Origin: an uncultured Prevotellaceae bacterium
GTDB lineage: Bacteria; Bacteroidota; Bacteroidia; Bacteroidales; Muribaculaceae
Assembly (NCBI GenBank): GCA_946186575.1
Contig: CAMHNO010000020.1
Span: 1 to 43,040, forward strand
DNA: 43,040 nucleotides
Reading direction: 5' to 3'
Part shown: piece after piece, positions 10,397 through 36,594 of the stretch
How the letters are laid out: the number at the start of each line of letters is the position of its first letter
Numbering within the stretch: the stretch's first letter is position 1
Program-made: the position numbers and the translations under genes
The notes under the pieces: model-generated
The model's database searches: none
Told to the model about the DNA's origin: nothing
The model's input: the letters and a program-made list of their open reading frames with translations, nothing else

Positions 10397-13300
10397 CTAA
10401 TTGTCTGCTCCCAGCAAGATTGAGTAGACCACAGTAACGTCGCCGGCAGTGATCTCTCCGTCGCCGTCCTGGTCGCCATTGACAATGTGGCTCGCGTCGT
10501 CGGCAAGCAGCCAGTTGTAGAGCGCAGTGGCATCGGCAATCGTAACTTCGCCGTCGCCGTCCACATCGCCAGCAATAGCCGTGCTGCTGGCAGTGGTGAC
10601 GTCCACCTTGTTGCTCCAGTGGCTCTCGTCGGTTCCATAAAGTGCCATCACGTCGTAGAGGTAGGTAGTGGCAGGCATGAGCCCAGTCACCTTATAGCTG
10701 CAGCTCGTAATGCCAGTGAAGAACACGTCTTGGGCAAAAGTGCCCGAAGCGGGTTCGCCGTCGTAGATTTCTACGCCAGTAATAATCACGCGCTTGCTGC
10801 GGGCTGTGGTGGAGAAGACGAGCTGCTGGCCAGTGGCCGCCTGGCAATCGAGCGTCACAACGAAGGTCTGCTCAGAGCCATCGGGCACTACCACTGTGGT
10901 GCTGGCGTCGCCGCATGCTACGGCGAGTTCGCAATTGGTGTCGCTGTTGCCCATGTTGTTAGTAAACGTGTGGGCGGTGAATTTAACCCACACCTTGCCC
11001 GTCGTGGTACTCAAGTCAATAGCAGGAGTGGTGATGCTGCCAGTGGAGCTGCCAGTGCCCAGACGCACTCCGCCCACAGCACTGTAGGCTGCAGTGCCGG
11101 TCCAACCAGGGTTGTCGCAATAGTCATCCATCATTGAGCCAATCATTTGAGACCCAGCTGTGGTGCACCCTGCAAAAGTCTCTGACAGCAGCGACGAGGC
11201 TACAAACTGCTTCACGCGCAGGGTGTAGCTGGTGGCTCCCTCGCAAGGTTGCCAGTTGGCAACGAACTGGCGTGCCCCGACTTCGGTAGCTGCAGTGGCC
11301 ACTGGCCTCTCAAGGGCGTTAAGTGGAGTTTGGAAGCCTATTTCATAAAGGTTGGAGAAATCGTTGTAAATAGTGACCATATAGATTTTTTTGTCGTCGA
11401 GCGTGCTCGAAGTGATGACCTCGGGCGTGTTGTTGCCGTAGACCGTGCTCTGCTTAGTGTCGACAGGAGTGGGCGCAGGAGTGACGCTGCCATCGGCATT
11501 GAGCGTGCACTCATAGATCGACATAATCAGAGGATAGCTCGAACTCTTGTTCAACGCTAGCTGCTTAACCTGAGTGCAGTTGGTCACATAGAAGGTCTGG
11601 TAATCCTCGCTCCAGTCGGCATAGAAGGGTGTGCCGTTAAAGTAGTTGGGACTACCCAAGAAGATGTCGGTGGCAAGCCACGAACCGCTGCCGGTGCGGT
11701 TGCCGCTATTGGTGAACCATGCTTGAGTGGCATCGGCCTTGATCACGCCATAATTTGAGAGGGTGAGCCAGGCGTAGTCGTCATATTCGGTGTAGTTGTA
11801 GAGGTTCATGATGTCATCGCTGTTCCATCCTGCATCGTCGATGGTGGCATATTTGGCGATGTTCAGGTAGGGATCGGCGGCAGTGCCACCGTCGTGTGCG
11901 GCACCTGTGAGGTTAACAGTGACGCTTTGTGCTCCAGGGCTTGAGAACTCTATGGTGCCTGCAAAGTTGCCCTCGCGAGGTGAGTTGAAGGTCACTTCCA
12001 CTTGAACAGGAGTGTTGACGTCGGTGCTGCTCTGAGCAATTGTGGCTGGAGTGACTGAGAACACACCGTTGGGGTCGGTGAGAGTGGCTGTCACGTCGCC
12101 AGTGAGGAAGGCGCCAGTGAGGGTGATGCTCTTAGTGATGGGTCTTGACAAGATAGCGCCAAAGTTCAGCTCTAAGGGCTCGACCAGCAGGGTGGAAACC
12201 CGTGGGCGTGCCATGCCAGTGATGGGCACAGTAACGGTTTTTACTTCCTCTTGGTCACAGCTCAGTATGAGAGTGGCCTCGGTGCTGCCAGCGGTCGATG
12301 GCGAGTAGGTGATGGTCACGTCGTAGCCCTCGGCAGCCTGCTGGGCAGTGATGGTGGTGGCATTGATGCTGTAGTCGCTTGATGCGTCAAGCTCAATGGT
12401 TATGTCGCTCTCAAGGTTGCGGGCATGCACCTTGACGGTGGTGCTATAGGTCTCGCCGGCAAATCCCTCGAAGTTGACCTCATGTGGAGCAGTTGTGATG
12501 ATGCCAATGGGAGGCTGTATGCCAAGCACCATGCGCTGATTGTCGCTGAAGGTGTAGCTGCTGTAGCCAAATGCGTTCATCGCATACCAGTTGTTGCCGT
12601 CGCCGCTCCAACCAAAGTTCACGTGATACTTGTTAAGATTAGGGTCGTAGCCGTCTACATTGAAGGCGTGGCCTCCAGCACCGCCATTATCTACACCGCA
12701 GAACACCACAGGTCTGCTCTCTACAATCTCCTCTTGCAGCATTGCAGCCCATTGCTGTTCGGTGTAATCGCTTTTTCTTACCAAGCGGCAAGTGGTCTCG
12801 TCGTAGCCGAAACCGATGTACATGTCGGCAATAATCTGGGTGTCGGTGGTGTAGATGCCGCTGCCGCCAGCTTCGCGGGTGCCATACATCATCTGCTCGC
12901 ACTGGCCCACGTAGCGCATCAGTGTGGCTACTGCTGCTCCTTGCTCGGGAGTGTAATCACCGGTGTAGTCGTCGATCATATTGTCCCAGTCGAAGGTGAC
13001 TTGCGGCAGGGCAGGATAGGTATAGCTCACGCTGTTCCAGTAACCCAGGTCGAGTGTGGAGCTGTAGGATGGGATGGGGCCCACGGGTTCAACGGGATAT
13101 TTCCAGTAGTAGAGCACCATCGAGGCCGAGGTGGCTGGACAGCCAGTGTAGCACTCGTAGGTGGTGCCGTTGTAGTCGAAGTGGCACAGGTTGTTGAAGG
13201 GTGCATCCTGGTCCCACAGGGCTGTGAGCAGTGGGCCATAGGTGGTGTCGTCTTTTACCGAGGGCGACTTGTAGGTAGTGGGCTTGTCGACCTTGGCATC

Positions 13301-13675
13301 GGGGTGTGTGAGCAGCCAGTCGAGCTGCTTCTTGTAGCCTTCGAGCCATGCCTGCATGTTGCATGGCATGCGGTCGAGGTTGAGTGGCCTATCGCCAATG
13401 GCGAGTATTTCCTCGGCTCGGTCGTCACCCGATACTATCACAAAGGTTGTGCTCGTGTTGAAGATGTAATACACTGGAGTTTTGGCGGTTTCGCCCATCT
13501 CGGTCTTGATTAGTTTGGCTTTTGCAGCTCCTGGAGCCATAATTCTTCCAGAGTAGACCTTATTTAAAAGGTATTGCTCGGCGCGCTCCTTAGCTGTAGT
13601 GACATCGACCGGCGCAGCAAAGGCAGCCGCGCAAGCAATAACAACAGCAAGGGTAAGTAGTGTGACTTTTTTCAT
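10397..13675 (-). CDS. Secreted C10 (streptopain-like) cysteine peptidase with C-terminal dockerin
   Basis: A 1092-aa secreted protease. A signal peptide (1-20) is followed by a Spi/C10-type inhibitory propeptide (about 24-125; PVYYIFNTSTTFVIVSGDDR). The catalytic domain (about 145-390) has Gln156 in WDQDAPF, nucleophile Cys179 in TGCPATSASM, His336 in GGHAFNVDGY, and the conserved NFGWSG (353-358). Two Ig-like repeats (about 395-490 and 495-595) precede the shared DPYL...EIGF module (601-785). An Fn3-like strand set, a jelly-roll-like segment (about 830-972), a second Fn3-like piece and the dockerin (1036-1090; DVDGDGEVTIAD, DQDGDGEITAGD) follow. A promoter box lies at 13753-13784. The propeptide suggests secretion as a zymogen. 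It closely resembles its neighbour at 13922-17197 over most of its length. Confidence 0.92.
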   Translation of the reverse strand: MKKVTLLTLAVVIACAAAFAAPVDVTTAKERAEQYLLNKVYSGRIMAPGAAKAKLIKTEMGETAKTPVYYIFNTSTTFVIVSGDDRAEEILAIGDRPLNLDRMPCNMQAWLEGYKKQLDWLLTHPDAKVDKPTTYKSPSVKDDTTYGPLLTALWDQDAPFNNLCHFDYNGTTYECYTGCPATSASMVLYYWKYPVEPVGPIPSYSSTLDLGYWNSVSYTYPALPQVTFDWDNMIDDYTGDYTPEQGAAVATLMRYVGQCEQMMYGTREAGGSGIYTTDTQIIADMYIGFGYDETTCRLVRKSDYTEQQWAAMLQEEIVESRPVVFCGVDNGGAGGHAFNVDGYDPNLNKYHVNFGWSGDGNNWYAMNAFGYSSYTFSDNQRMVLGIQPPIGIITTAPHEVNFEGFAGETYSTTVKVHARNLESDITIELDASSDYSINATTITAQQAAEGYDVTITYSPSTAGSTEATLILSCDQEEVKTVTVPITGMARPRVSTLLVEPLELNFGAILSRPITKSITLTGAFLTGDVTATLTDPNGVFSVTPATIAQSSTDVNTPVQVEVTFNSPREGNFAGTIEFSSPGAQSVTVNLTGAAHDGGTAADPYLNIAKYATIDDAGWNSDDIMNLYNYTEYDDYAWLTLSNYGVIKADATQAWFTNSGNRTGSGSWLATDIFLGSPNYFNGTPFYADWSEDYQTFYVTNCTQVKQLALNKSSSYPLIMSIYECTLNADGSVTPAPTPVDTKQSTVYGNNTPEVITSSTLDDKKIYMVTIYNDFSNLYEIGFQTPLNALERPVATAATEVGARQFVANWQPCEGATSYTLRVKQFVASSLLSETFAGCTTAGSQMIGSMMDDYCDNPGWTGTAAYSAVGGVRLGTGSSTGSITTPAIDLSTTTGKVWVKFTAHTFTNNMGNSDTNCELAVACGDASTTVVVPDGSEQTFVVTLDCQAATGQQLVFSTTARSKRVIITGVEIYDGEPASGTFAQDVFFTGITSCSYKVTGLMPATTYLYDVMALYGTDESHWSNKVDVTTASSTAIAGDVDGDGEVTIADATALYNWLLADDASHIVNGDQDGDGEITAGDVTVVYSILLGADN

Positions 13676-13921: not shown

Positions 13922-16900
13922 TCAAATTTCAACCCCCAGCAAGATAGCATAGACAACGGTGACATCGCCCGATGTGATTTCGCCATCGCCGTCCTGGTCG
14001 CCATTGACAATAGCACTCATGTCGCCAGTGAGCAGGAAGTTGTAGAGAGCAGTGATGTCGCCAGAGTTGGTCTCACCATCGCCGTTAACGTCGCCAACAA
14101 CTCCGCCCAGTGTGAGAACCTCGATTACGTTGCTCCAATGGCTCTGTTCGGTGCCTATGAGGGCCTTCACGTCGTAGAGATAGGTGGTGGCGGGCTGCAA
14201 ACCAGTAACGTTGTACTTGTTGGCAGTGATGCCAGTGAAGATCATCTCGCCAGCAGCCTTGGCCTCGGTGTTGTACTCGCCGCTATAAAGCTCAACGCCT
14301 GTGATAACCACGCGCTTGCTCTTGGCTACGGTCTCAAATGTTACATTCTGGCCAGCCTGAGCGGTGCAGTCGAGTACTTGCACGAGCTCAATCTCCTCGT
14401 TGCTGGGCACGGTGATGGTGGCTGTGGCGTCGCCGCACGAAATCTTGAGGTCGCAATTGGTGTCGTTGTTGAAGGTCTTAACCTTGAGCTTTATGCTCAC
14501 CTTGCCGCCGCTCTGCGACAAGTCGAGGGCTGGGCTGGTGAGAGTGCCAGTGGCACTGCCAGTGCCCATGCGTATGCCGCCCACTGCGGTATAGAGCTTG
14601 CTGCCTGTCCAGCCAGGATTGTCGAGATAGTCGTCAAGCTTCGAACCCACATCTTGCGAGCCAGCGGCGGTGCAGTTTGTGAAGTTCTCGGTAATGAGCT
14701 GGATGTAGTCGGGCTTGGGCATCACGCGCAGGGTGTAGCTGTTAGCGCCCTCCACTGGGTTCCAGTTGGCAATGAAGCCAGTGGCAGCAACCTCGGTAGC
14801 GGCTGTGGCTACAGGAGCGTCGATTGTGCTGATTGGGGTCTTGAAGCCAATCTCATAGAGGTGAGAATAGTCGTTGTAGATTTTCACCATGTAGATCTTG
14901 GTTGGGTCGAGATTGCCCGAAGCAATCACCTCGGTGGCGCTGTAAACTGAGCTCTGCTTCGAGTCAACTGCAGTGTTGCCAGGAGTGATGCTGCCATCGT
15001 TGTTGAGTGTGCACTCATAGATTGTCATCTTCAAGGGATAGGACGACCCCTTGTTGTAGGCATATTGTTTAACCTGAGTACAATTGGTAACGTAGAAGGT
15101 CTGGTAGTTCTCGTTCCAGTCGGCATACTTGCTGGTTCCGTAGGCGGTGTTGCCTAAGAAGATGTCGGTAGCGTTCCAGACCTCGTTGCCTTCCTTCATG
15201 GTGCCCTCATGAGTAATCCACTTTTGGGTGGCGGTGTTGGTCATGGCGCCGTAGTTCGAGACGGTGAGCCATGCGCACTCTTGCTCGGGATACTCGGTGT
15301 ATTTGTACAAGCTTGTCAGGCCACTGAAGCCAGCTTCGTCGATAGTCTCATATTTGGCAATGTCGAGATAAGGATCGATTGCTGTGCCGCCATCGTTGGC
15401 ATTGGCAGTGAGCGTTACTTCAACGTTCTCGGCGCCAGCGCTGGCAAATGTGAGAGTTGCATTGTAGTTGCCCTCATTGTCGCTCTTGAAGTTGACGGTA
15501 ACTTGCTGTGGGGTCTCGCCGTTGAAGCTGCCAGCAGCAAGGTTGGTGGGATTCACGGTGAACACGCCGTTGGGGTCGTTGAGAGTGATTGAGACGTTGT
15601 CGGTCAAGAACACGCCGGTGAGGTCGATGGTCTTGCTCACGGTCTTACCAAGCTTAGCCACAAAGTTGAGTGCGGTGGGGTTGGCAACCAAAGTGGGCAC
15701 GCGAGGCTTAGCCACGGCGTTGATGGGCACTGTCACGTCGTCAACACCAGTCGCCGAGAGGGTGAGCGATGCGCTGGGGTTGCCGGCTGCTGTGGGCTTG
15801 TAGGTCACTGTCACGTCGTAGCCATTCTGAGCCTGGGCAGGAGTGATGGTGGTTGGGCTAACAGTGAAATCGTTAGAGCCGCTCTTGGTGATGGTGATGT
15901 TACTCTCCATCTCGCGAGCAGTCACGTGGAGGGTCTGAGTGTAGGTCTCACCCACATATCCTGTGAAGTCGAGCTGCTCGGGCGTAGCTATGATGATGCC
16001 GCTGCCAGGCTGTATGCCAATGATCATCTGCTGGTCGCTGTTGAAGTTGTAGCCTTCGCCGTCGGCAAAGGCGTTCATGGCGCACCAGTTGTTGCCGTCG
16101 CCGCTCCAGCCAAAGTTGATGTGATACTTATTAGTGTTAGCGTCGTAGCCATCAACGTTGAATGCATGGCCTCCAGCGCCGTTGTCCACTGCCATAAACA
16201 CCACGGGGCGGCTCTCAATCATCTCGGTTTGCAGCAATTGAGCCCACTGGGCCTCGGTGAAATTGCCTTTCTGAACCAAGCGAGTGGTGTTCTCGTCGTA
16301 GCCAAAGCCAATGTACATGTCGGCAACAATCTGGGCATCGGTTGTGTAGATGCCACTACCGCCAGCCTGAGCGGTGCCATACATCATGTGTTCGGCCTGA
16401 CCCACGTAGCGCATCAGTGTGGCTACTGCTGCGCCTTGCTCTGCGGTGTAAGTCTCGTTATGAGTGATACCGTTTTCGTCTTTCCAAGTGCCATAATGGT
16501 CTTTCATGTTGTCCCAGTCGAAGGTCACTTGTGGCAGAGCGGCGTAGGTGTAGTTCACGCTGTTATAGTAGCTCAGCTCGAGCGATGCGCTGTAAGCGGG
16601 CATCGGTCCAACGGGGCTAGTGGGGTACTTCCAGTAGTAGAGCACCATCGATGCCGAAGTGGCAGGGCAACCTGTGTAGCACTGATAGGTGGTGCCGCTA
16701 TAGGTGAACTTGCACTGATCCCAGTAAGGTTCAGTTTGATCCCACAAGCAGGTGAGCAGTGGGCCATAGACGTTGGCCTTGAGGCCTGGAGCCTTGAAAG
16801 TGGTTGGTTTCTCGACCTTGGCATCGGGGTGGGTGAGCAACCAGTCGATTTGGCGCTTGTAGCCATTGAGCCATGCCTGCATGTTGGTGGGGATGCGGTC

Positions 16901-17197
16901 CAGGTTCAGAGGTCTGTCGCCATAGGCAAGAACCTCCTCGGCGCGGTCATCACCAGCGACGATGACAAACGTGGTCTCGGTGTTGAAAATGTAGTACACA
17001 GGCTTTTGAGCCTTCTCGCCCATCTCGGTCTTGATGAGCTTTGCTTGAGTGGCTGCAGGAGCCATGGTTTTGCCGGTATAGACCTTGTTTTTAAGGTACT
17101 GCTCGGCCGTGCGTTGTGCTGCCGACGGGTCGACAGGAGCTGCCGCCAGTTGCATGGCAACTGCCGCGACAACGAGTAGAGATAAGAGTTTTCTCAT
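13922..17197 (-). CDS. Secreted C10 cysteine peptidase with C-terminal dockerin (second copy)
   Basis: The start is the ATG at 17197 (MRKLLSLLVVAAVAMQLAAA, a signal peptide). A TTG two codons upstream could extend it but would only spoil the leader. The 1091-aa product has a Spi-like propeptide (about 22-125; PVYYIFNTETTFVIVAGDDR). Its peptidase domain (about 143-390) carries Gln154 (WDQTEPY), Cys177 in TGCPATSASM, His344 in GGHAFNVDGY, and NFGWSGDG. Ig-like repeats, the DPYL...EIGF module (about 605-785), an Fn3/jelly-roll region and the dockerin (1034-1091; DVNGDGETNSGD, DQDGDGEITSGD) follow. Domain order is the same as in the neighbour at 10397-13675, so the pair arose by tandem duplication. 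It contains an extra loop near 238-250 (KDENGITHNETY) absent from that copy. Confidence 0.92.
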   Translation of the reverse strand: MRKLLSLLVVAAVAMQLAAAPVDPSAAQRTAEQYLKNKVYTGKTMAPAATQAKLIKTEMGEKAQKPVYYIFNTETTFVIVAGDDRAEEVLAYGDRPLNLDRIPTNMQAWLNGYKRQIDWLLTHPDAKVEKPTTFKAPGLKANVYGPLLTCLWDQTEPYWDQCKFTYSGTTYQCYTGCPATSASMVLYYWKYPTSPVGPMPAYSASLELSYYNSVNYTYAALPQVTFDWDNMKDHYGTWKDENGITHNETYTAEQGAAVATLMRYVGQAEHMMYGTAQAGGSGIYTTDAQIVADMYIGFGYDENTTRLVQKGNFTEAQWAQLLQTEMIESRPVVFMAVDNGAGGHAFNVDGYDANTNKYHINFGWSGDGNNWCAMNAFADGEGYNFNSDQQMIIGIQPGSGIIIATPEQLDFTGYVGETYTQTLHVTAREMESNITITKSGSNDFTVSPTTITPAQAQNGYDVTVTYKPTAAGNPSASLTLSATGVDDVTVPINAVAKPRVPTLVANPTALNFVAKLGKTVSKTIDLTGVFLTDNVSITLNDPNGVFTVNPTNLAAGSFNGETPQQVTVNFKSDNEGNYNATLTFASAGAENVEVTLTANANDGGTAIDPYLDIAKYETIDEAGFSGLTSLYKYTEYPEQECAWLTVSNYGAMTNTATQKWITHEGTMKEGNEVWNATDIFLGNTAYGTSKYADWNENYQTFYVTNCTQVKQYAYNKGSSYPLKMTIYECTLNNDGSITPGNTAVDSKQSSVYSATEVIASGNLDPTKIYMVKIYNDYSHLYEIGFKTPISTIDAPVATAATEVAATGFIANWNPVEGANSYTLRVMPKPDYIQLITENFTNCTAAGSQDVGSKLDDYLDNPGWTGSKLYTAVGGIRMGTGSATGTLTSPALDLSQSGGKVSIKLKVKTFNNDTNCDLKISCGDATATITVPSNEEIELVQVLDCTAQAGQNVTFETVAKSKRVVITGVELYSGEYNTEAKAAGEMIFTGITANKYNVTGLQPATTYLYDVKALIGTEQSHWSNVIEVLTLGGVVGDVNGDGETNSGDITALYNFLLTGDMSAIVNGDQDGDGEITSGDVTVVYAILLGVEI

Positions 17198-17283
17198 AAT
17201 CAATTAATTAAATTTGATGAAAATTGAATGATATTGAAAATATTAGTTTTTCCTATTAAAAATGGTATTTCCAAAAAAGCCCT

Positions 17284-22400: not shown

Positions 22401-22930
22401 GGGCAGCCAGTGTAGGTGTGTGTACTACCACTGGTGGGGGTGTGGTTCCAGTAAGGTGCGTTCTGGTCCCAGTTGGCATTTGTCAGCGGAGCAACTGCCG
22501 TTGTTGCTTTAGGAGTGTAACCGTTAGGCTTCATGGTACCAGCCTTGAGACCGTCAATCTGATACTTGTACTTGTTGAGCAACCACTGCATTGCGGGTGG
22601 GATGTCGTTCAAGTCAATTTGTCCTTCCTCGCCGTACATCAGAATTTCTGGTGCCTGGTCGTCACCAGAAACAACAACATACGCTTTGTCGGCATTAAAG
22701 ATGTAGTAGTCCACTGCTTTTGGGTTGAAAACCGAAGGTTCGGCTTTCGCGAGTTTTAGATTAGTGATGGCCGAGGCCCTTAGGCGGCCTTTTGCCACTT
22801 GCTTGGTCATGAATGTCCTTGCTACATTTTGTGCGGCAGCCAGGTCAACGTCGGCTGCCTGCATCTGTGTGGCAACGCATAGCATCAGCGCTAACGCCGA
22901 CCACTGTTTTAGTCGTTTGAATGGTTTCAT
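19460..22930 (-). CDS. Secreted C10 cysteine peptidase with cleaved-adhesin-like domain, dockerin and extra tail
   Basis: An 1156-aa secreted protease with a signal peptide (1-25) and a Spi-like propeptide (about 28-130; VDYYIFNADKAYVVVSGDD). The C10 domain (about 145-390) carries Gln156 (WDQNAPY), Cys176 in YTGCPATSLSM, His327 in GGHAFNVFGC, and NWGWSGED. Ig-like repeats precede the DPYL...EIGF module (about 610-800), then an Fn3-like unit. A cleaved-adhesin-like domain of the type found in gingipains (about 855-1010; FENGLGNWTLINTDGDSYNW, PDQWLISPQI) replaces the jelly-roll segment of the other copies. The dockerin is at 1057-1110. Unlike all its relatives, it continues for 46 more residues (1111-1156), a Ser/Thr/Lys-rich tail made from a short repeat. 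It is more divergent than the pair at 10397-17197. Confidence 0.9.
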   Translation of the reverse strand: MKPFKRLKQWSALALMLCVATQMQAADVDLAAAQNVARTFMTKQVAKGRLRASAITNLKLAKAEPSVFNPKAVDYYIFNADKAYVVVSGDDQAPEILMYGEEGQIDLNDIPPAMQWLLNKYKYQIDGLKAGTMKPNGYTPKATTAVAPLTNANWDQNAPYWNHTPTSGSTHTYTGCPATSLSMCFYIFKWPSTYPALPKVSVSGGVTAPALSEKAADWANMLDEYTGPTNTTYNSTQAEAVSWLMRYVGQACNMQYTTSGSGAYDPDILEACHTFGYTDAQLLTLTSGYAGYNQNYTDAQWNEWMLAELHAGRPIEYLASDPSAGGHAFNVFGCDANGKYYVNWGWSGEDNGYCTLHNFTTGNNSTGQGGGSYTFNYGEAMIIGIAPPAGALGPQITVDPTTLAFEGYVGDTYTKTFTVTGANLEGNITITKQGASNITVSPTSITAANAAGGVQVTVTYKPTAAGNSNATITLASTNAESVTVNVTGTAQAKVPTINVDPTSVSMTANLSSTVTKTINVTGLFLTNNITVTLNDNNGVFSVTPTTITATNAANGVPVTVSFNSANEGNFTGSLVLTSNGAESKTVQLTASAAEGGNASDPYLNISKYNTIGEAGATVSGMSKIYSYTEYPSDACAWLTLSYYGAQKVDANQNWFDFEGTAKSGNETWNANGIFLGSSNYFTGTAYYCNWNEAWQNFYVTNCTEVSQLSYNIGSSYSSGNTYPLKMQIYECTLNADGTLSVGTTAVVNKQSQLTNQVEVTSSGALDPSKIYKVRIYNDYSRLYEIGFKTDLDVTLPATPINVQADPATTTASISWTPGENNDGWNLRWREYIEGASDNEVTFTEDFENGLGNWTLINTDGDSYNWQTVDLTSSFSGQFTAKDGSYVAMSRSWINNSVGAVTPDQWLISPQITDLGGTLKYYIMDDGNNYQENYRIYVSTTGKNVSDFVPVTDDMLSPNSTDWTEVSIDLSAYKGQTGYIAFRHYNCTDKDFMFIDAISLTSMPAAEWNYVNNVTSPYTIEGLTANTTYEVQVQGKFESATSGWTASTIFTTLAGSVAGDVNGDGEVTSFDITALYNFLLLNDSSDIVNGDQNGDGDITSADITEVYSILLTTNSSKAKSITKTMINSETKIMNNSETTTETKIMNSSATTTSIKKQ
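19496..19574 (-). repeat. Direct repeats encoding the C-terminal tail of the C10 peptidase
   Basis: Two identical 19-bp copies (19496-19514 and 19532-19550, ATTCATGATTTTAGTTTCA on the + strand) lie 36 nt apart, with a third degenerate copy at 19556-19574. The period is a multiple of three, so SETKIMN is repeated in frame. Confidence 0.8.
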
Positions 22931-27585: not shown

Positions 27586-30500
27586 TTAGTTCTTGCTTTG
27601 AGTGAGAAGAACCGTGTAAACCAAGGTCACGTCGGTTGAGGTGATATTGCCGTCGCCGTCTTGGTCGCCATTGACGATTGCGCTCATGTCGCCAGCGAGC
27701 AAGAAGTTGTAAAGGGCGGTGACGTCGGCACTGGTCACGAAACCGTCGCCGTTAACATCGCCTTGCAAAGCAGTGCCTTCGGCAAGGGTGGTCACATCAA
27801 TCATGTTTGACCAGTTGCTCTGTTGGGTGTCATAGAGTGCCATCACGTCGTAGGTGTAGGCGGTGGATGGGGTCAAACCATTGACAACCTTTTGGGTGGT
27901 GTTGATGCCCTCGATGATAATGGGCTCGCCACTTGAGCTGGTGTCGGTAAGGTCCACGTCGTAGATTTCTACGCTGGTGATAACCACGCGTTTCTTCTTG
28001 ACGGTGGTAGCAAAGCGAATCTTCTGTCCTGCCTCTTGTGTGCAGTCGAGAGCCACAATGTAGCTGCCCTCGTTGCTCGATGGCACAGTGATGGTCTCGC
28101 TGCTCTCGCCACAGCTCACCTGCAATGGGCAATCGACGTCGGTGTCGTAGGCACGAGCCGTGAACTTCACGCTCACCTTGCCATTGCTTCCGCTCAGGTC
28201 GATGGCTGGCGACTGAAGCAAGCCATTGTAGCTTGTAGAGCCCAGGCGGATGCCACCCACAGCTTGGTAGATGTAGCTGCCTGCCCAGCCAGCGTTGTCG
28301 GTGAAATTGTTAACGCTATTGGCAATATTGGTAGTGCTTTCCTTAGTGCACTTGGCAAAGGTCTCGGTCATGAGGGATGTTGCTTCGATTGCTTTCTGTA
28401 TGCGCAAGGTGTAGCTGGTAGCAAAGAGGCAGGGTTCCCAGTTGGCTGTGAACGAGGTGTTAGTGATGCCTGTGGCGTCGGTCGCATGAGGAGCAACAAT
28501 GTTGATGCTTGCAGTGCCAGTCGCTGTAAGGGTCTGGCTCTGGGCTCCTGTGCTTGAAACGGTGATGTTGCCAGTGTGGGTGCCTGCTGCAGTGGGAGCA
28601 TAGGTTGCTGTAACAATCACATAGCTGTTTTCGTCGAACTCTGAAGCGGCAATGGTGCTTGGTGTCACTGTGAACATCTCGTTGTCGCTGGTGATGTTGA
28701 CATCGCCATCAAGGAACATGCCGTAGACACGGAAAGTCTTAGTCGTCTCGCTGCCTGCCCAAGTGCTCATCTCGAGCGAGGTGGGGTTCAACGTCAGAGT
28801 TGGAGTCTTGGGCTCAGCAACACCTGCAACGCTGATCGACACTGTTTGAGCGCCAGCACTGGCAATGTTGATAGTGGCCTGAGTGCTGCCTGCAGCAGTG
28901 GGGATGAATTTGATGGTAAGGGTGGTTCCGGCAAGCAGGTTGGCATTGCTGATGCTTGTGGGTTCTACCTTGTAGATACTTGGGCCCACCACGCTCACGG
29001 TAGCACCCTGAGTGAGGTTGTAGCCTTTGAGGTCGACAGTGGTGGTGATGGTGTCGCCCACATATCCGCTCATGCTCAACTCGGTATTGCTGACCTCGAT
29101 GCGCGGAGCGCTGCTTTGCTGCAGGATGTACTGGATGCCTGCAAGGGCATTGATGATGCCATGACCACGCTGCTTGTCAGGGCTTTGAGGATTGGCATAG
29201 GCAGTGGCCGAATGGGCAATCACGTCCTTGATGCCATCGACGTTAAGTGTGGGGTCGGCTTGCAAGTACAGTGCCACCACGCCAGCAGCGATGGGAGTGG
29301 CCATTGAGGTGCCGCTATAGGCATCCCAATAGTCTTTCTGGCCAAAAAGGGTGGTGTTATATTCACAATAGTTCAGATAGGCGCTGCTGTAGTTTCCGGT
29401 GTCATACTTGTTGATAGGAGCTATCACAGCATGTCCAGGAGCGGTGATGTAGGGATGGTTGTTGCCGCTGAAGTCGGTGCCGAAACTCGAGAAGTAGGCC
29501 ACGTCGTTGAGGCTATAGGGGCTATTAGAGAACGAGTTCTTAGGTGTGCTCAGGCGCGAGCACATGGCACCCACGCTGATGGTTCTTGCGCCGCAAATGT
29601 CGTCGGTCATGGTGCCATCGGCAGTGCCTCGGGTCACGGTGTAGCCACTGACGGTGCCGGTCGAAGCGATAGTCGAGTAGTAGCCGCCGTCGGTCCATGC
29701 TTCAATCTTATTCCCGCTCTTGCCGCTGATGGCATAGACGATGCGGTAAGCACTGTTCTTAACTCCGCTCACTGTGGGGTTGATGTAGAGCTCGCGGCGT
29801 CCAAATGAAGTGCTGTTGTAAATCTGAATGTTCACGTTAGAGAAATAGGTGGTGCCCATTTGCGAGGTGGTGATGGTGCCGCTGCTAATGGGGTCGCTGG
29901 TGTAGAGCACAGCGCCGGTGGTCTTGTTCACAACCATTATCTTGACGGTCATGGCATCGGTGGTGCTGTTCCAGATGTCGATGGCGGCATTGCTTCCCAA
30001 GTTGCCCGAGATAGAGCCGTAGGCAGTCTTGCCCTCGTGGATGATGGTCATGGCGTCGGTGTCGCTGCTCAGGGTCTTGGTGGCATAGCCAGTGGCGTCG
30101 GCCTCATTGCCGCTGGCAAGCAGAATCACTGCGCCAAACTGGTTGGCAACTTGGTCGAGCACTCGGCAAATGGAGCTCTTGCCGTCGTGAGGTCCCATGT
30201 TGGAGCCCAAACTGATGCTGATGACGCAGGGCTTGCCCACGCTCTTGGCATAGTTGGCAATGTATTTTGCTGAGTTGGTGATAGAGGTCTCACTCATGTA
30301 GGCACCCAAGCCGCAAAGCACAAGGTCGGCATCAGGTGCCATGCCCGAGTAGCCACCAATAGTCGATGCACCGGCACAGCCGCTGGTGTGTGTGCCGTGG
30401 CTCTCGCTGGTGTCGTCGGTAGTGATTGATGAGAGCTGGCTACCAGTGTATTGGCGGCCACTGAATGAAATGCCGTTGACCGATGCTGCCGAGCCACCGC

Positions 30501-31050
30501 TGGTGGCGTTGGGCAGGTAGGCCACTTTCACGCGCGAGTTGCCATTAGCGTCCTTAAAGGCGATGTGGTTAAACTCGATGCCGCCGTCAATTACGCCCAA
30601 CACCACGTTTTGGCCGGTAAAGGCTTGTGTCAGGCCGTTGTTAAGGCCATTCCATGCGTTCTCGGCCTTGGTGATGGTCTTGGCCTTGTCGCTAAGGTGA
30701 TGCACCTGGCGTGCAATGGCAATTTGATTCACACACTTTAAGTTGGCCACCTCTTCTATAATGTTAATAGGTATCATTGCGCTCACAATACCGTCGTACT
30801 CGCCAGTGACAATCACACCAGCCGACTCAAGTTCGGCTATCTGCATGCTGTTGAGCGTGATGAAGCAATCGATGGTCTCAACCCCATTCACAGCTTTGCT
30901 CTTGACAAATGGGTGATGAGGATCGTGGTTTTGAGCAGTTCCGCTTGCAAGCTGGTGCAAGAAGGATAGGGTGGGAGCACTTAGCTTGTCGTTGGCGCTC
31001 ATTGTCAACGACATAGCAGCCACCACTATCAGTAGAAAGAATTTTCTCAT
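27586..31050 (-). CDS. Secreted S8 subtilisin-like serine peptidase with C-terminal dockerin (second copy)
   Basis: An 1154-aa secreted protease with a signal peptide (1-19) and a propeptide-like segment (about 21-118; TLNSMQIAELESAGVIVTGEY). The S8 domain (about 125-655) has Asp155 (LGVIDGGI), His218 (SHGTHTSG), Asn315 (ASGNE) and Ser582 (GTSMATPIAAG). The large insert between Asn and Ser (about 330-480) is longer than in the neighbouring S8 protein. Two Ig-like repeats (about 660-850), an Fn3-like unit (about 860-900), a jelly-roll-like segment (about 905-1040), another Fn3-like piece and the dockerin (1096-1154; ends VYTVLLTQSKN) follow. It lacks the DPYL...EIGF module found in its neighbour, so that module was gained or lost separately from the catalytic half. 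The protease probably cleaves outside the cell; its substrate is unknown. Confidence 0.93.
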   Translation of the reverse strand: MRKFFLLIVVAAMSLTMSANDKLSAPTLSFLHQLASGTAQNHDPHHPFVKSKAVNGVETIDCFITLNSMQIAELESAGVIVTGEYDGIVSAMIPINIIEEVANLKCVNQIAIARQVHHLSDKAKTITKAENAWNGLNNGLTQAFTGQNVVLGVIDGGIEFNHIAFKDANGNSRVKVAYLPNATSGGSAASVNGISFSGRQYTGSQLSSITTDDTSESHGTHTSGCAGASTIGGYSGMAPDADLVLCGLGAYMSETSITNSAKYIANYAKSVGKPCVISISLGSNMGPHDGKSSICRVLDQVANQFGAVILLASGNEADATGYATKTLSSDTDAMTIIHEGKTAYGSISGNLGSNAAIDIWNSTTDAMTVKIMVVNKTTGAVLYTSDPISSGTITTSQMGTTYFSNVNIQIYNSTSFGRRELYINPTVSGVKNSAYRIVYAISGKSGNKIEAWTDGGYYSTIASTGTVSGYTVTRGTADGTMTDDICGARTISVGAMCSRLSTPKNSFSNSPYSLNDVAYFSSFGTDFSGNNHPYITAPGHAVIAPINKYDTGNYSSAYLNYCEYNTTLFGQKDYWDAYSGTSMATPIAAGVVALYLQADPTLNVDGIKDVIAHSATAYANPQSPDKQRGHGIINALAGIQYILQQSSAPRIEVSNTELSMSGYVGDTITTTVDLKGYNLTQGATVSVVGPSIYKVEPTSISNANLLAGTTLTIKFIPTAAGSTQATINIASAGAQTVSISVAGVAEPKTPTLTLNPTSLEMSTWAGSETTKTFRVYGMFLDGDVNITSDNEMFTVTPSTIAASEFDENSYVIVTATYAPTAAGTHTGNITVSSTGAQSQTLTATGTASINIVAPHATDATGITNTSFTANWEPCLFATSYTLRIQKAIEATSLMTETFAKCTKESTTNIANSVNNFTDNAGWAGSYIYQAVGGIRLGSTSYNGLLQSPAIDLSGSNGKVSVKFTARAYDTDVDCPLQVSCGESSETITVPSSNEGSYIVALDCTQEAGQKIRFATTVKKKRVVITSVEIYDVDLTDTSSSGEPIIIEGINTTQKVVNGLTPSTAYTYDVMALYDTQQSNWSNMIDVTTLAEGTALQGDVNGDGFVTSADVTALYNFLLAGDMSAIVNGDQDGDGNITSTDVTLVYTVLLTQSKN

Positions 31051-31258: not shown

Positions 31259-33670
31259 TTATGTGCCCATCAGGATGTTGTAGACCACAGTGACGTCGGC
31301 CGATGTGATGGTGTTGTCGCCATTCTGGTCGCCGCTGGCAATTGCGCTGTCATCGGTATTAAGCAGCCAGTTGTAAAGCGCAGTGATGTCGACCGCTGTT
31401 ACCTTGCCATCGCCGTTCACGTCGCCTGGCACAACTTCGCTCACGGGCGCGTTCTTGTAAATCACTTCAAGACCAGGAATCAGCATGGTGTATTGCTGAT
31501 CCTTGGTCGACTTGCCCATTGTTACTTGCACATAGGATAGCTTAATGGGATAGTTGCTCACATCGTTGGCATCAATCCACTGGCCGATGGGCAGGTCGAG
31601 GGTCGACTCCACATTGGTGGGAACCGAATCGGGGGAGACAGCCTGATAGCTGATGTTGCCACCGCAGGGTCGCAGGGCAAATTTCACACCAGTGACAGGT
31701 GCCATGCCAGGATTGATGCGCACTCGCAACGTGTCGGGCAAGCTCCACAGTATTATGTCCTTGCTCATCCTGAAGTAATTGGTGCGGCCGCTGTTGCCAG
31801 TGTAATCAACCTTTACACCATTGTCGAGGGGTTCAATAGTATAGTTCTTGCCACCGCTCATGGCAAAACTCCATGTGGCAAGGTCCATGTCGGGGTCAAG
31901 AGGATAGACGCGCTTAACAGGCTTCTCGACGATAACCTTCATTGTCACGTTCTTGTCCTCGATAGTGCCTGTGACCCAAGCCACACCATTCTTAACGCCC
32001 TGCAGCACTCCCGTGGCTGGATTGATGGTGACGATGCTCTCGTCGCTGCTGCTCCAGGTGAGTGCTGCTGGGTCGAGTGGCATCGATGCCTCGCCCATCA
32101 TGCTCACCAGCTCCACGGCATGAGTGCGATAAGTGTCGGTGAGTATTGAGTCGTTCTTGAGTGTCACCGCTTCGGCAGTGCCCACAATGGTGAGAGGCGC
32201 ACTCACTGTGATGTTGCCCAGTGTGGCAGTGAGCATCGCTGAGCCACTGCCGTTGCCAAAGAATGTGCTACCACCATCGCGTATCTCGCCCAGCGATTCA
32301 GGGCAAGAGAGTTGCACGCCTTGCACATCGGTGTCGACGAGCATGCCATACTGGTTGTAACCATAAAAATGAGGTGTGTAGATGCCAAACTTGGGCACCG
32401 TGAGGCTGAAGTCGACAAATCGCAGCGAGGCAATCTCGTTGTCGTCGGGTGCATTGCTCACGACAAAAAAAGCGTTGCCATCCTTGCGCTCAGTGCCGTC
32501 GCTGGGATTGTTGCGAGTTCCCAGGGCACTGGTGTAGAGAGCCGCCGAGCCGCCACCATCCACATTCATGGCATGAGTGCAGCCAGCGTAACGCATGATG
32601 TCGGCAAGCACTGTGGTGCGCACGCCGTCGCTAATGAGCGATCGCCCATCCACGACAAGGAAATACACCTTGCTGCCCCCATCGCTGTAGCCCACTGCCG
32701 AGCGTGGATGAAGCTGGCTGGCATCGCCACGCTCGCTTTCAGTGTCGAGCACTACGCCGTCTTCAAGAATCTTTGGATTGCCCGAGATTACCTGCTGCGG
32801 GTCGACACTCAAGTCGCCAAACTTCCATGTTGGGGCGATAGTGATGGTGTCGCCATCTTGCAAAGCGTTGACCACGGTGGCAGCAGTGCCGCGACCGCGA
32901 ATCACATATTTTCCCGAAGGGATTGTCATGTCGCCTTGAGTGCTGGGAGCGCCTTCAATCACCATCTTGTAGGGTTGTGCGCTCTCAAAGGTGAAGCCTT
33001 GCGCCAGTCGTGCAAGCACCTCGGTGCCATCGTTGGTCTCGTCGGTGCTGCCGTAGTAGCGGTCGGTGTAGATGACAATCTTGTTGTTGCATTCGCTCGA
33101 ATAAGTGTTCACGCCGCCCAGTGTGGCCGTTGCGCCCGTGGGTGATGTTAAAGTGCCAGCGAAGACGAATGGGTTGACATACACACCACCTTGCTTGTCA
33201 ACAACAAAGTTCTTGTAGAGCGCGGCATTGTTGCGTGCTCGATAAATTTCGCCATCGACCACTGTGGCACCCACAGGAGTGCCCACAACCGACACTCCCC
33301 GCCCAGTGGTGCCGCTGGTGAAGAAAAAGTCGGCATTGATTCCCACAAAGTATCGCTTGCCAGGCTCGCTCTTGCGCTGGGCCATTTCGGAAACACTCTC
33401 GTTACCTGCCACCTTGTCGGTAGCGCACACTCCAGCAAGCGACAGGTAAGGATTGGTCATGTCGATAGTGCAGTAGAACACCCTGAGTTTGCCTGTTTCG
33501 TTGTGAAACCACAGTGAGGTTTGAGTGGTACCAGGTCCCACTTGGTTGTGAAATAGCGTGTCGACCTGGTATTCCACACCGCGCAGAGTCCAAGTGGTTG
33601 TGGCGCTGGCGCTCAATGTCGCCGCTGCCATCAGTGCTATCAATATGAATAAAAGAGTGTTACGTTTCAT
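31259..33670 (-). CDS. Secreted NAGPA-type phosphodiester glycosidase with Big_2-like domain and dockerin
   Basis: An 803-aa secreted protein with a signal peptide (1-23). Residues about 65-410 form a phosphodiester glycosidase (NAGPA / former DUF2233) domain. Visible landmarks are FVGINADFFF (109-118), the GVSVVGTPVGATVVDGEI stretch (125-142), SAVGYSDGGSKVYFLVVDGR (324-343) and the hallmark NVDGGGSAALY (369-379). Relatives cleave GlcNAc-phosphodiester linkages; the bacterial substrate is not established. A Big_2-like Ig domain (about 515-590; LTWSSSDESIVTINPATGVL) and a beta-rich carbohydrate-binding-like segment (about 595-740) lead to the dockerin (748-803; DVNGDGKVTAVD, DQNGDNTITSAD). The start is 19 nt after the stop of the upstream gene and no promoter fits between, so it is the last gene of a three-gene operon. 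Confidence 0.87.
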   Translation of the reverse strand: MKRNTLLFILIALMAAATLSASATTTWTLRGVEYQVDTLFHNQVGPGTTQTSLWFHNETGKLRVFYCTIDMTNPYLSLAGVCATDKVAGNESVSEMAQRKSEPGKRYFVGINADFFFTSGTTGRGVSVVGTPVGATVVDGEIYRARNNAALYKNFVVDKQGGVYVNPFVFAGTLTSPTGATATLGGVNTYSSECNNKIVIYTDRYYGSTDETNDGTEVLARLAQGFTFESAQPYKMVIEGAPSTQGDMTIPSGKYVIRGRGTAATVVNALQDGDTITIAPTWKFGDLSVDPQQVISGNPKILEDGVVLDTESERGDASQLHPRSAVGYSDGGSKVYFLVVDGRSLISDGVRTTVLADIMRYAGCTHAMNVDGGGSAALYTSALGTRNNPSDGTERKDGNAFFVVSNAPDDNEIASLRFVDFSLTVPKFGIYTPHFYGYNQYGMLVDTDVQGVQLSCPESLGEIRDGGSTFFGNGSGSAMLTATLGNITVSAPLTIVGTAEAVTLKNDSILTDTYRTHAVELVSMMGEASMPLDPAALTWSSSDESIVTINPATGVLQGVKNGVAWVTGTIEDKNVTMKVIVEKPVKRVYPLDPDMDLATWSFAMSGGKNYTIEPLDNGVKVDYTGNSGRTNYFRMSKDIILWSLPDTLRVRINPGMAPVTGVKFALRPCGGNISYQAVSPDSVPTNVESTLDLPIGQWIDANDVSNYPIKLSYVQVTMGKSTKDQQYTMLIPGLEVIYKNAPVSEVVPGDVNGDGKVTAVDITALYNWLLNTDDSAIASGDQNGDNTITSADVTVVYNILMGT

Positions 33671-33689: not shown

Positions 33690-35111
33690 TTAGTTGCCGA
33701 GCATTATGTTGTAGACCACAGTAATGTCGACGCTCGAGATGTGTCCGTCGCCATCCTGGTCGCCATTGACGAGGTCGGTGTCGTTGCCGTCGAGCAGGTA
33801 GTTGTAGAGGGCAGTGACGTCGACACTGCTCACATGGCCGTCGCCGTTCACGTCGCCAGGAATTGTAGCAGAAGAGTCAGGCTCAACACCTGGCCCAATC
33901 TTATAAACACCCATTCCGTTGAAAGCCTTGAAGGTGAGCAATGTAACTTCCTCGTTGCCTTGTTCGTCGGTGCCCTTTTCTACCGCTATGCAATGCACTC
34001 GCAAGCCCGAGTCGTTAAACTTGCCCACGCTGTCGGCTGGCAACTGCCAGTATTTCTCCATGGTCGCAAGCATGTCGCCCTCGCCCAGCTCGCACACGTT
34101 TATTTGGCACCCGTTGCCATTGCTGTTCATGTCGCCTTTGACGTAGGCAAAGAAGTGGCGGTCGTCGAGTGTGAACTCGTTCATGCCGTTGGCTGCCACA
34201 CCAGTGGGTTGCAGCTCTTGTGGCACGTTTTCGAAGCTGTCGATCAGGGTTCCGTCCACATAGTAGAGCAATGGTGCGCCATCGAAACAGTCGATGTAGA
34301 AATATTCGCCGCTATAGCGTGTCTCGTCGTCGGTGCCCAGAAGCATCTTAATCACTGGGGCGAGGCTGAAGCCCACTTTCTCGGCAGGATAGAACTCGGT
34401 AAACTCCATGTAGGGGTCTCCGCTGAAGCCACCCTCCCAGGTGTCGATGTCGCCACCCTGTTCGTTGTGCCAGCGATAGACGGTGGGGAAGCCTGGGTTG
34501 TTACTGTTGTGACCAATGGTCATGATGTTGCACTCGGCTTGCTCAAGAGTGATGTCGCCCACAAGGTCGAGATAGTCGGTGCGGTGTAGCACCTCGCCCT
34601 TGTCCATGTTGGTCACAAGAGTCATGGCGCCACTCTGCGTGTCGACCATGTAGATGGGTATGGTGGCAGCTGTCTCACCAGTCATTGGAGCCACCCAGAT
34701 GTGTCCAAAGTTGTCGCACCCTATGCTTGTGTTGCCTAAGAACACGCCGTAGGGTTCGCCATTGAGTGTGAGGTCCAGGTCGATGGTTGGTTCTCCAGTG
34801 ATGGCATCGAAACAGTGTATCACACCTTGCATGATGGTGTCGTTTTTTCCAGTGTTTGGGTTTGGGATAATCACTTGCTTCTCCTGGTTGCGCGACACGT
34901 AGACCACTCCGCCAGTCATTGTGGCCGTGCGGGCGTTGGTGTGAGCAATGGGCGAGGCAAGGTAGGCCTGGTTGGCATGCACTCGGTCAAGCATCCACAG
35001 GTTCTTTACTCCTATGCCGTTGATTTTTGCATAGGTCTGCCCGTCGGTCGCAGCCCATGCTCCCATGACGGTGATTGCCGCCAATGCTGCTATAAGAAAT
35101 AATTTTTTCAT
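33690..35111 (-). CDS. Secreted propeller-like protein with dockerin
   Basis: A 473-aa secreted protein with a signal peptide (1-20) and no enzyme motif that I recognise. The body (about 25-410) has repeating beta-strand units of a propeller type (TATMTGGVVYVSRNQEKQV, GCDNFGHIWVAPMTG, PIYMVDTQSGAMTLVTNM). The dockerin occupies 418-473 (DVNGDGHVSSVD, DQDGDGHISSVD). It is paralogous to the next gene upstream (35164-36594) through the whole length, sharing for example LVGDITLEQAECN and FSGDPYM.FTEFYP. It is the middle gene of an operon: 52 nt after the upstream paralogue and 19 nt before the phosphodiester glycosidase. Its role may be substrate or surface binding, which is inference. Confidence 0.85.
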   Translation of the reverse strand: MKKLFLIAALAAITVMGAWAATDGQTYAKINGIGVKNLWMLDRVHANQAYLASPIAHTNARTATMTGGVVYVSRNQEKQVIIPNPNTGKNDTIMQGVIHCFDAITGEPTIDLDLTLNGEPYGVFLGNTSIGCDNFGHIWVAPMTGETAATIPIYMVDTQSGAMTLVTNMDKGEVLHRTDYLDLVGDITLEQAECNIMTIGHNSNNPGFPTVYRWHNEQGGDIDTWEGGFSGDPYMEFTEFYPAEKVGFSLAPVIKMLLGTDDETRYSGEYFYIDCFDGAPLLYYVDGTLIDSFENVPQELQPTGVAANGMNEFTLDDRHFFAYVKGDMNSNGNGCQINVCELGEGDMLATMEKYWQLPADSVGKFNDSGLRVHCIAVEKGTDEQGNEEVTLLTFKAFNGMGVYKIGPGVEPDSSATIPGDVNGDGHVSSVDVTALYNYLLDGNDTDLVNGDQDGDGHISSVDITVVYNIMLGN

Positions 35112-35163: not shown

Positions 35164-36594
35164 TTATTCGTTGCCGAGCATTATGTTATAGACCACGGTA
35201 ATGTCAACGCTCGAGATGTGTCCGTCGCCGTCCTGGTCGCCATTGACGAGGTCGGTGTCGTTGCCGTCGAGAAGGTAGTTATAGAGAGCGGTCACATCCA
35301 CGCTGCTCACGTGGCCGTCGCCATTCACATCGCCTGGGACAGCAACTTGGATGGGATCGTCGGGGGTCACTCCCTCGCCCACCATGTAGACGCCCATGCC
35401 GTTGTAGCACTTGTATTCAAGAATCATCACGGCCTCCTTGCCACCCTCGGTAGTATAGTCGGTGGTGATGGGGTGTATGCGCAAGCCACTGTCGCTGGTC
35501 TGTCCCTGGCCGTCGGCGGGGAATGTCCAATAGCGCTTCATGCCGTTGAAGGCCATGCCCTCACCCAGCTCGCAAATGTTGACCTGGCAAGAGTTGGGAG
35601 CATCGTACTGTGCCAGCGAATAGACGATGAAGTTGCGGTCGGCAAGTGCAAACTCGCCAATGCCGTTGGTTCCCACCTTGGGCATCAATAGGCTGTCGGC
35701 GTCCATCTCTTCTTGAGTGAGGCTGCCGAAGCCGTCGATTATGGTGCCGTCGTTGGCATAGAGCACGGGCACGGTTGTGAAGCCGTCGATGTAGAATGTC
35801 TCGCCACTGTAACGGTAGTCCTCGTCCTCGCCAAGCACGAAGCGGCTGGCGGGAGCAAAGCCCCAGTGGGTCTGGTTTTCGGGATAGAACTCGGTGAAGT
35901 CCATGTAGGGGTCGCCACTGAAGAAGCCATCCCAGGTGTCGATGTCGCCTCCCTGGTCGTTGTGCCAAGCATAGACGGTGGGCACCTGCGAGCCTGGAGT
36001 CATCACGTTGCACTCGGCCTGCTCAAGGGTGATGTCGCCCACGAGGTCGACATAGTCGGTGCGCGCTATCACGTCGCCCTTGTTAAGATTGCCGCGCAGG
36101 GTGAGTTCTCCTGTCTCAACGTTGAGCTGATAGATGGGCACCGTAGTGGCTGCCTCGCTGGTGTAAGGTGCCACCCACACGTGTCCAAAGTTGTCCTTGC
36201 CTATAGTGTTGGCGCCCAAAAATGCTCCATAAGGCTCACCATTGAGGGTTACATCAAGCGGTGCCAGTTCCTCGCCGGTCATGGCGTCGAAGCGATAGAT
36301 CACGGCTGCCATGATGGTGTCGCCTGGTTGTGGGATAATCTGTTTGGCCTCGCTGCGTGCCACATAGACGATGCCGTCTTGCATTGTGGCAGTGCGCGCC
36401 TTGGTGTTGCACCAGTCGAGTTTTTCGAGTTCGTTTGGCCCATAGTGGAAGCGGTCTTTGAGCCACAGGTTGCGCATGCTGATGCCGTTCACAGTCTCAT
36501 AGCTGTTAGGGTCGCGGGTGAGCAATGAGCCAGCAGCCATAGCTGTTGAGCATACCAATGCCACTAATGATAAAAGGAGTAATGTTCTTTTCAT
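35164..36594 (-). CDS. Secreted propeller-like protein with dockerin (paralogue, first gene of operon)
   Basis: A 476-aa secreted protein, signal peptide 1-20, paralogue of the gene at 33690-35111. The same landmarks appear in the same order: TATMQDGIVYVARSEAKQI, DNFGHVWVAPYTSEAATT, LVGDITLEQAECN, YSGETFYIDGF and GLRIHPITTD. The dockerin (420-476) matches that of its neighbour for 55 consecutive residues, while the bodies have diverged considerably. It is the first gene of the operon that ends with the NAGPA-type enzyme. No terminator or promoter lies in the 52-nt gap downstream. I found no good TAnnTTTG box in the 205 nt upstream, so its promoter is unclear. The function is unknown; no catalytic residues are evident. 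Confidence 0.85.
   Translation of the reverse strand: MKRTLLLLSLVALVCSTAMAAGSLLTRDPNSYETVNGISMRNLWLKDRFHYGPNELEKLDWCNTKARTATMQDGIVYVARSEAKQIIPQPGDTIMAAVIYRFDAMTGEELAPLDVTLNGEPYGAFLGANTIGKDNFGHVWVAPYTSEAATTVPIYQLNVETGELTLRGNLNKGDVIARTDYVDLVGDITLEQAECNVMTPGSQVPTVYAWHNDQGGDIDTWDGFFSGDPYMDFTEFYPENQTHWGFAPASRFVLGEDEDYRYSGETFYIDGFTTVPVLYANDGTIIDGFGSLTQEEMDADSLLMPKVGTNGIGEFALADRNFIVYSLAQYDAPNSCQVNICELGEGMAFNGMKRYWTFPADGQGQTSDSGLRIHPITTDYTTEGGKEAVMILEYKCYNGMGVYMVGEGVTPDDPIQVAVPGDVNGDGHVSSVDVTALYNYLLDGNDTDLVNGDQDGDGHISSVDITVVYNIMLGNE

What the first reader, a model, noticed from the sequence alone, without database searches (positions are those of the whole stretch)
10397..36594. A 26-kb block of nine dockerin-tagged secreted enzymes and binding proteins, with no cohesin in sight
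Nine consecutive - strand genes, plus 497-2413, end in a two-repeat dockerin with intact calcium loops (D-x-[DN]-G-D-x6-D). The set mixes C10 and S8 proteases, a phosphodiester glycosidase and non-catalytic proteins. In cellulosomes dockerins plug enzymes into a cohesin scaffold, but here the enzymes are mostly proteases and no cohesin or scaffold is encoded in the window. Either a protease-based extracellular assembly exists with its scaffold elsewhere, or these dockerins do another job such as sorting or surface retention.
Basis: partly seen in the sequence, partly recalled or inferred. Interest (0 to 1): 0.75.

Follow-up and report, generated by a model that had tools for sequence, protein, structure and literature searches.

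The report
Cellulosome-like protease assembly in rumen Muribaculaceae
A rumen bacterium tags dozens of its secreted enzymes with a small plug-like domain and, elsewhere in its genome, encodes the matching socket proteins, so it probably builds a multi-enzyme machine on its surface where its cousins tag the same enzymes with a secretion signal instead.

The parts
497..2413 (+). secreted protein without a recognised catalytic family, C-terminal dockerin (dockerin match 2240-2401)
10397..13675 (-). C10 peptidase with I69 pro-domain, C-terminal dockerin (10421-10573)
13922..17203 (-). C10 peptidase with I69 pro-domain, fn3, C-terminal dockerin (13943-14095); listed TTG start, a Met follows as third residue
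17444..19213 (-). secreted protein without a recognised catalytic family, C-terminal dockerin (17465-17617)
19460..22930 (-). C10 peptidase with I69 pro-domain and Cleaved_Adhesin domain, dockerin (19610-19762) followed by a 45-residue low-complexity tail
23383..27291 (-). S8 subtilase, C-terminal dockerin (23413-23562)
27586..31050 (-). S8 subtilase, C-terminal dockerin (27616-27762)
31259..33670 (-). NAGPA phosphodiester glycosidase, Big_2-like domain (below cut-off), C-terminal dockerin (31271-31429)
33690..35111 (-). secreted protein without a recognised catalytic family, C-terminal dockerin (33705-33860); resembles 35164-36594 by eye
35164..36594 (-). secreted protein without a recognised catalytic family, C-terminal dockerin (35182-35337); resembles 33690-35111 by eye

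Best explanation
The ten dockerin proteins of the window are cargo of a cellulosome-like, calcium-dependent cohesin-dockerin assembly of a rumen Muribaculaceae genus (probably Sodaliphilus; inference). Enzymes leave the cytoplasm by Sec signal peptides and plug by their dockerin into cohesins. The cohesins sit (a) on a secreted scaffold with six tandem cohesins and its own dockerin, and (b) on three proteins with one cohesin, one dockerin and a T9SS-type tail (two of them also with BspA-type LRRs), which would be the surface anchors. The scaffold's dockerin would plug into an anchor. In this genus the dockerin has taken the place that a T9SS sorting domain has on C10 and M6 proteases of other genera of the family, so the tag now gives the enzymes their surface address through a partner. 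Shown by sequence: dockerins, cohesin fold, architectures, T9SS-type tails, co-occurrence in the genus, exchange of tails. Inferred: the binding itself, which dockerin goes to which cohesin, surface location, and the route over the outer membrane.
Against: No binding was tested. The full-scaffold AlphaFold model (8 sequences, pTM 0.28) left the dockerin region at low confidence (10-residue means 35-50) and gave no docking. Genome G001 (another genus of the family, 85% complete) has 30 dockerin matches and no cohesin at E<=0.01, so dockerins can multiply without a detectable cohesin. Nine cohesins for 79 dockerins is few. Neither the scaffold nor most cargo has a T9SS tail, so their way to the surface is unexplained. 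35 genomes outside the genus have cohesin matches with few or no dockerins. Other Bacteroidales families also have dockerin expansions whose cohesins were not looked at.
Confidence: 0.75

Rival explanations
1. The dockerin is itself a secretion or sorting signal read directly by T9SS or another exporter, with no cohesin partner: a new kind of tag that replaced the CTD.
For: It occupies the CTD's place on C10 and M6 proteases; most cargo has no other recognised outer-membrane signal; genome G001 has many dockerins and no detected cohesin.
Against: Of 79 dockerins, 11 lie within 110 residues of the start and 8 are internal, so it is not bound to the C-terminus; four proteins carry both dockerin and a T9SS-type tail; calcium loops and two-fold symmetry are those of a binding module; cohesin matches are present in 20 of 20 sampled genomes of the genus.
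Confidence: 0.1
2. A periplasmic assembly: cargo and scaffold meet by cohesin and dockerin under the outer membrane and never leave the cell.
For: 75 of 79 have a signal-like N-terminus (the four others are frames cut by contig ends), but only 4 of 79 show a T9SS-type tail, and a loose lipobox pattern fits 6 of 79; the scaffold has no tail either.
Against: Homologous proteases of other genera mostly carry T9SS tails, hence should be surface or secreted proteins; three of the four cohesin-bearing proteins of this genome have T9SS-type tails; cargo types (amylases with starch-binding CBM26, LRR, carbohydrate-binding Cthe_2159) suit extracellular substrates.
Confidence: 0.12
3. Dockerin and cohesin act only in cis: they are structural neighbours inside the dockerin-cohesin-CTD proteins, and dockerins elsewhere are calcium-stabilised end caps without a partner.
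For: In the single-cohesin proteins a dockerin stands right before the cohesin; no trans docking was obtained.
Against: 75 of 79 dockerin proteins hold no cohesin match with the profile; the six-cohesin scaffold is kept in 8 of 9 relatives, which a cis pair does not need; dockerins within a genome are alike across protein families.
Confidence: 0.08

Closest known systems
Ca. Stygibacter (Cloacimonadota) cellulosome-like complex, PMC8542988 (section 7 read)
   Same: Proposed from MAGs: C-terminal dockerins on S8/S53 and C25 peptidases, GH18 and GH57; scaffoldin-like protein with tandem cohesins; a CTD attaches the complex to the cell surface; starch, chitin and protein rather than cellulose.
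   Different: There one 3,755-residue scaffoldin-like protein carries cohesins, CBM2/CBM3 and, as described, the CTD. Here the scaffold has six cohesins and a dockerin, with no CTD and no CBM found by Pfam; the CTD is on separate cohesin proteins; cargo is dozens of proteins; the phylum is Bacteroidota; and the exchange of CTD for dockerin is documented.
Planctosome of Nemodlikiaceae (Planctomycetes), PMC6461901 (passages read)
   Same: Hypothetical non-cellulosic cohesin-dockerin machine for polypeptides, with anchor (cohesin) and adaptor (dockerin + cohesin) proteins.
   Different: Other peptidases (M12B, M14), lamin-tail-domain anchor instead of a T9SS tail, no six-cohesin scaffold in the passages seen.
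Dockerin-rich Sodaliphilus MAGs of goat kids, PMC10872696 (passages read)
   Same: Reports 63 to 107 cellulosome dockerins in Sodaliphilus members, probably this genus; our genome has 79 dockerin proteins.
   Different: The term cohesin does not occur in its main text (0 occurrences); read there as capacity for cellulose degradation; no scaffold, anchor or T9SS link in the passages seen.
Clostridial cellulosomes and the R. bromii amylosome (passage in PMC6118326; rest recalled)
   Same: Dockerin-bearing secreted enzymes, multi-cohesin scaffoldins; a dockerin on the scaffold (recalled).
   Different: No GH5, GH9 or GH48 and no CBM on the scaffold in the Pfam scans; Gram-negative, T9SS-type anchoring.

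Membership tests
Dockerin type I (PF00404) | two calcium-loop repeats matching the Pfam model above its cut-off | tested here: met
   10 of 10 window proteins; genome-wide, D/N at each calcium position in 78 of 79 rows, two proteins with one loop only, strict pattern in both loops in 48 of 79
Cohesin (PF00963 / cohesin fold) | sequence match to PF00963 | tested here: inconclusive
   one borderline match, 23.2 bits (24.3 with neighbours) against a cut-off of 24.1; hmmscan of the whole scaffold lists no cohesin at E<=0.001
Cohesin (PF00963 / cohesin fold) | cohesin beta-sandwich fold | tested here: met
Cellulosome | scaffoldin with several cohesins plus dockerin-bearing enzymes in one genome | tested here: met
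Cellulosome | calcium-dependent cohesin-dockerin binding | not testable with these tools
   no docking obtained in the full-scaffold model; needs a binding assay
Cellulosome | cellulases among the dockerin enzymes and a cellulose-binding module on the scaffold | tested here: not met
   no GH5, GH9 or GH48 in Pfam scans of the 79 proteins at E<=0.001 and only Dockerin_1 on the scaffold (scaffold)
T9SS substrates (anchor proteins) | signal peptide and C-terminal sorting domain | tested here: met
   TIGR04183 above cut-off at C10:43151, below it at C3:75453 and C10:41105; 16 of 25 cohesin proteins of the genus without a called terminal dockerin at E<=1
T9SS substrates (anchor proteins) | T9SS machinery in the genome | tested here: met
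   SprA, 2730 bits over positions 2-2318 of 2319; PorU, PorV and GldKLMN were not searched
T9SS substrates (window cargo) | C-terminal sorting domain | tested here: not met
   none of the 10 window proteins fits the tail pattern and none of the 13 TIGR04183 matches at E<=0.1 lies on the window's contig

The most novel reading that the evidence does not exclude
Dockerin as a travel ticket: in this genus the direct T9SS signal of many enzymes was given up, and folded enzymes are carried through the T9SS pore while bound by their dockerin to a cohesin protein that alone bears the sorting domain. One exported carrier type would then serve a whole exchangeable set of enzymes, and the same bond would hold them on the surface.
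Probability: 0.25. Interest if true: 0.92.

Novelty: new variant of a known kind. Interest (0 to 1): 0.75.

Why it matters
For dockerins in rumen Bacteroidetes one paper says the functional role 'is not defined yet' (passage in PMC7480376), and another states that no cohesins or dockerins were found, consistent with other Bacteroidetes genomes (passage in PMC5831590). Here a partner is put on the table: cohesins that Pfam barely detects, in all 20 sampled genomes of one genus whose named relatives are mostly rumen MAGs. If right, Gram-negative gut bacteria build cellulosome-like machines for protein and starch, anchored by T9SS. The exchange of sorting domain for dockerin gives a clean, testable handle on whether T9SS can export a complex.

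Tried and rejected
Pfam cohesin alone would have led to 'almost no cohesin'; a profile of the six repeats was needed (the six match it by construction, the three other proteins do not). PDB sequence search with that profile gave only a weak top hit to a scaffoldin cohesin, E 0.31. Full-scaffold model: beads visible, dockerin unresolved, so no statement on docking. 'The genus lost T9SS tails' rejected: 7-17 TIGR04183 matches remain per genome, within the range of the rest of the family (0-28, cap 28). T9SS piggyback transport: 7 papers hold both words (listing); in the one opened (PMC9251779, passages) piggyback refers to peroxisomes and hitchhiking to Tat. Searches for earlier reports: dockerin with Bacteroidetes/Prevotella/cohesin, Muribaculaceae, type IX secretion, Bacteroidales/scaffoldin, Bacteroidota, noncellulosomal/archaea, Sodaliphilus, sorting domain, and planctosome (mostly listings seen). 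None of the passages I read describes a cohesin scaffold in Bacteroidota, but most hits were not opened, and subscription papers are mostly not held. Frames set aside from the tail counts: those open at the 3' end (among them L163 of the genus) and duplicates. The eighth C10 match of the own genome was not located. The two dockerin linker classes could not be tied to particular cohesins.
Full report
Observation. The window is contig C20 of a 2,715,099-base genome in 80 contigs (94.76% complete, 3.47% contaminated). Three are C10 peptidases with an I69 pro-domain, two are S8 subtilases, one is a NAGPA phosphodiester glycosidase, and four have no catalytic family. One gene, 19460-22930, continues for 45 low-complexity residues after its dockerin. 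No cohesin match lies on this contig.

The genome-wide set. PF00404 gives 81 matches; with a profile made from the genome's own dockerins I count 79 proteins. At each of the eight calcium positions, taken singly, 78 of 79 rows have D or N; two proteins (in L131 and L136) have only one loop. 59 dockerins end within eight residues of the C-terminus, one is followed by the 45-residue tail, 11 lie within 110 residues of the start and 8 are internal. A signal-like N-terminus (a hydropathy rule of mine) is seen in 75 of 79; the other four frames are cut by contig ends. Cargo families: C10 peptidase 7, S8 3, M6 3, GH13 amylase 3, CBM26 without an amylase hit 2, GH53 1, GHL10 2, NAGPA 1, CotH kinase-like 6, FGE-sulfatase domain 4, Cthe_2159 carbohydrate-binding 2, one each of non-specific endonuclease, Amidase_3, PAP2, DUF4886 and Calycin_like, and eleven LRR proteins (counting only matches above the family cut-offs). 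No GH5, GH9 or GH48 appears at E<=0.001. So the set is protein-, starch- and adhesion-oriented rather than cellulolytic; many members have no family besides the dockerin.

The missing cohesins. The Pfam cohesin model gives one borderline match at C3:72882-73253 (23.2 bits, 24.3 with neighbours, cut-off 24.1). It lies in a 921-residue frame (C3:72657-75422, - strand) with a signal peptide, six tandem repeats of about 130 residues and a C-terminal dockerin. A profile of those six repeats finds nine domains in the genome: the six, and one each in three other proteins, at C3:75597, C10:41264 and C10:43295 (the six match by construction). Those three also hold a dockerin and a C-terminal tail of T9SS type: TIGR04183 is above its cut-off for C10:43151 and below it for C3:75453 and C10:41105. 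Two have BspA-type LRRs. The T9SS translocon SprA is present over its whole length; the other T9SS parts were not searched.

Conservation. A scan of named genomes with the scaffold returned nine loci, all from MAGs titled Muribaculaceae, Prevotellaceae or Bacteroidales; hosts named in the titles include red deer, water buffalo and goat. Eight keep six cohesins and one has four, all with a terminal dockerin; in nine of nine the gene just upstream is a 574-581-residue dockerin-cohesin protein with the T9SS-like tail. In 197 genomes of the family, cohesin matches occur in 55: all 20 of the own genus and 35 of the other 177 (one search lists all 197). Dockerins occur in 65: all 20 of the genus with 11-31 matches (scoring stopped at 31), G001 of another genus with 30, and 44 others with 1-6. 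With a broader profile, 19 of 19 other genomes of the genus have 3-28 cohesins and G001 has none. I sorted 44 closed cohesin-bearing frames of the genus (the genus loci, the nine named loci and the own genome): 16 end in a called dockerin, 28 do not. Of those 28, three are duplicates; of the remaining 25, 16 match TIGR04183 at E<=1. By eye three of the 25 still end in or close to a dockerin (one frame each in L052, L055, L074) and one in L054 ends in a FGE-sulfatase-like domain.

Exchange of tails. C10 peptidases occur in 137 of 148 family genomes and M6 peptidases in 101 of 148. I took loci by rank of the catalytic domain, not by tail (all genus members in the cut lists, plus the best of other genera), and kept frames closed at the 3' end. 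C10: 16 of 18 frames of the genus (10 genomes besides the own) end in a dockerin, 0 of 40 readable ones elsewhere; a 41st has a masked tail. M6: 19 of 20 of the genus (8 genomes), 0 of 28 elsewhere; the one M6 of G001 also ends in a dockerin. Tails of 100 residues from other genera (68 scanned) match TIGR04183 in 50 and PF18962 in 37; tails of the genus (38) match Dockerin_1 in 35 and PF18962 in 1, all at the lenient E<=1. The three genus exceptions are two C10 of G143 and one M6 of G126, which keep a sorting-domain-like tail. In the own genome 7 of 8 C10 matches are in dockerin proteins; the eighth was not located. This is a genus-level change seen in two protein families, not dozens of independent events.

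Sign of a shared partner. Among 45 C10 and M6 dockerins of 11 genomes of the genus, pairs from one genome but different protease families are 58.0% identical on average (53 pairs), pairs from different genomes but one family 42.5% (426 pairs); none of 2000 shuffles of genome labels reached the difference. That is what a common cohesin partner per genome would produce; gene conversion without a partner could do it as well.

How it most likely works. Cargo is exported by Sec, folds its calcium-bound dockerin and plugs into cohesins of the scaffold or of the T9SS-tailed proteins; the scaffold's own dockerin plugs into an anchor. The open step is the outer membrane: only 4 of 79 dockerin proteins show a T9SS-type tail, and 3 of these 4 are the cohesin-bearing anchors. 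Either cargo leaves by an unknown way and docks outside, or it rides through T9SS bound to an anchor, or the complex stays in the periplasm. That T9SS passes folded proteins is general knowledge recalled here, not tested.

Known or new. The genus is probably Sodaliphilus: relatives are mostly rumen MAGs called Muribaculaceae, and a goat-kid study reports 63 to 107 dockerins in Sodaliphilus members, with no occurrence of the word cohesin in its main text (passages). A CTD on a cohesin scaffold with peptidase cargo was proposed for Ca. Stygibacter of the Cloacimonadota (section read), and the planctosome is a hypothetical peptide-degrading relative (passages). Dockerins of rumen Bacteroidetes were reported without a known role (PMC7480376 passages). 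So this is a new variant of a known kind: a Bacteroidota version with split scaffold and anchors and with the dockerin standing in for the sorting domain.

Noticed in passing
own genome, 79 dockerins (L089-L136 and window): Two linker classes between the calcium loops: '..AIVNGDQ..' (43 of 79, all ten of the window) and '..T(F/Y)..TSDV..' (23 of 79, including the scaffold and 8 of the 11 dockerins near the N-terminus); 13 fit neither. May mark two cohesin specificities.
   Followed up: partly
G001 (L252): Genome of another genus with 30 dockerin matches, an M6 protease ending in a dockerin, but no cohesin found; either incomplete (85%) or a different partner.
   Followed up: partly
order-level genomes G199, G240, G283, G378, G444: Further dockerin-rich Bacteroidales from other families; their cohesins and protease tails were not examined.
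   Followed up: no
window 19460-19610: Low-complexity 45-residue tail after the dockerin with repeated short units (T/S/N/K rich); no other window dockerin protein has one.
   Followed up: partly
G040, G060, G090, G103, G115, G126, G143, G150, G157, G163, G184, G188 and G000: Two neighbouring cohesin frames of about 620-720 residues within 5 kb of each other; in G000 these are two LRR-dockerin-cohesin-CTD genes. Read by hand from a listing that was cut, so a lower bound of 13 of 20 genus genomes.
   Followed up: partly
L102, L103, L116, L126, L129 (own genome): Six CotH kinase-like proteins carry dockerins.
   Followed up: no
window 39472-42552 (-) and 38102-39313 (+): By eye: a secreted TPR protein with a CHAT-like protease end, and a secreted phosphodiesterase-like protein; neither shows a dockerin. 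Not scanned.
   Followed up: no
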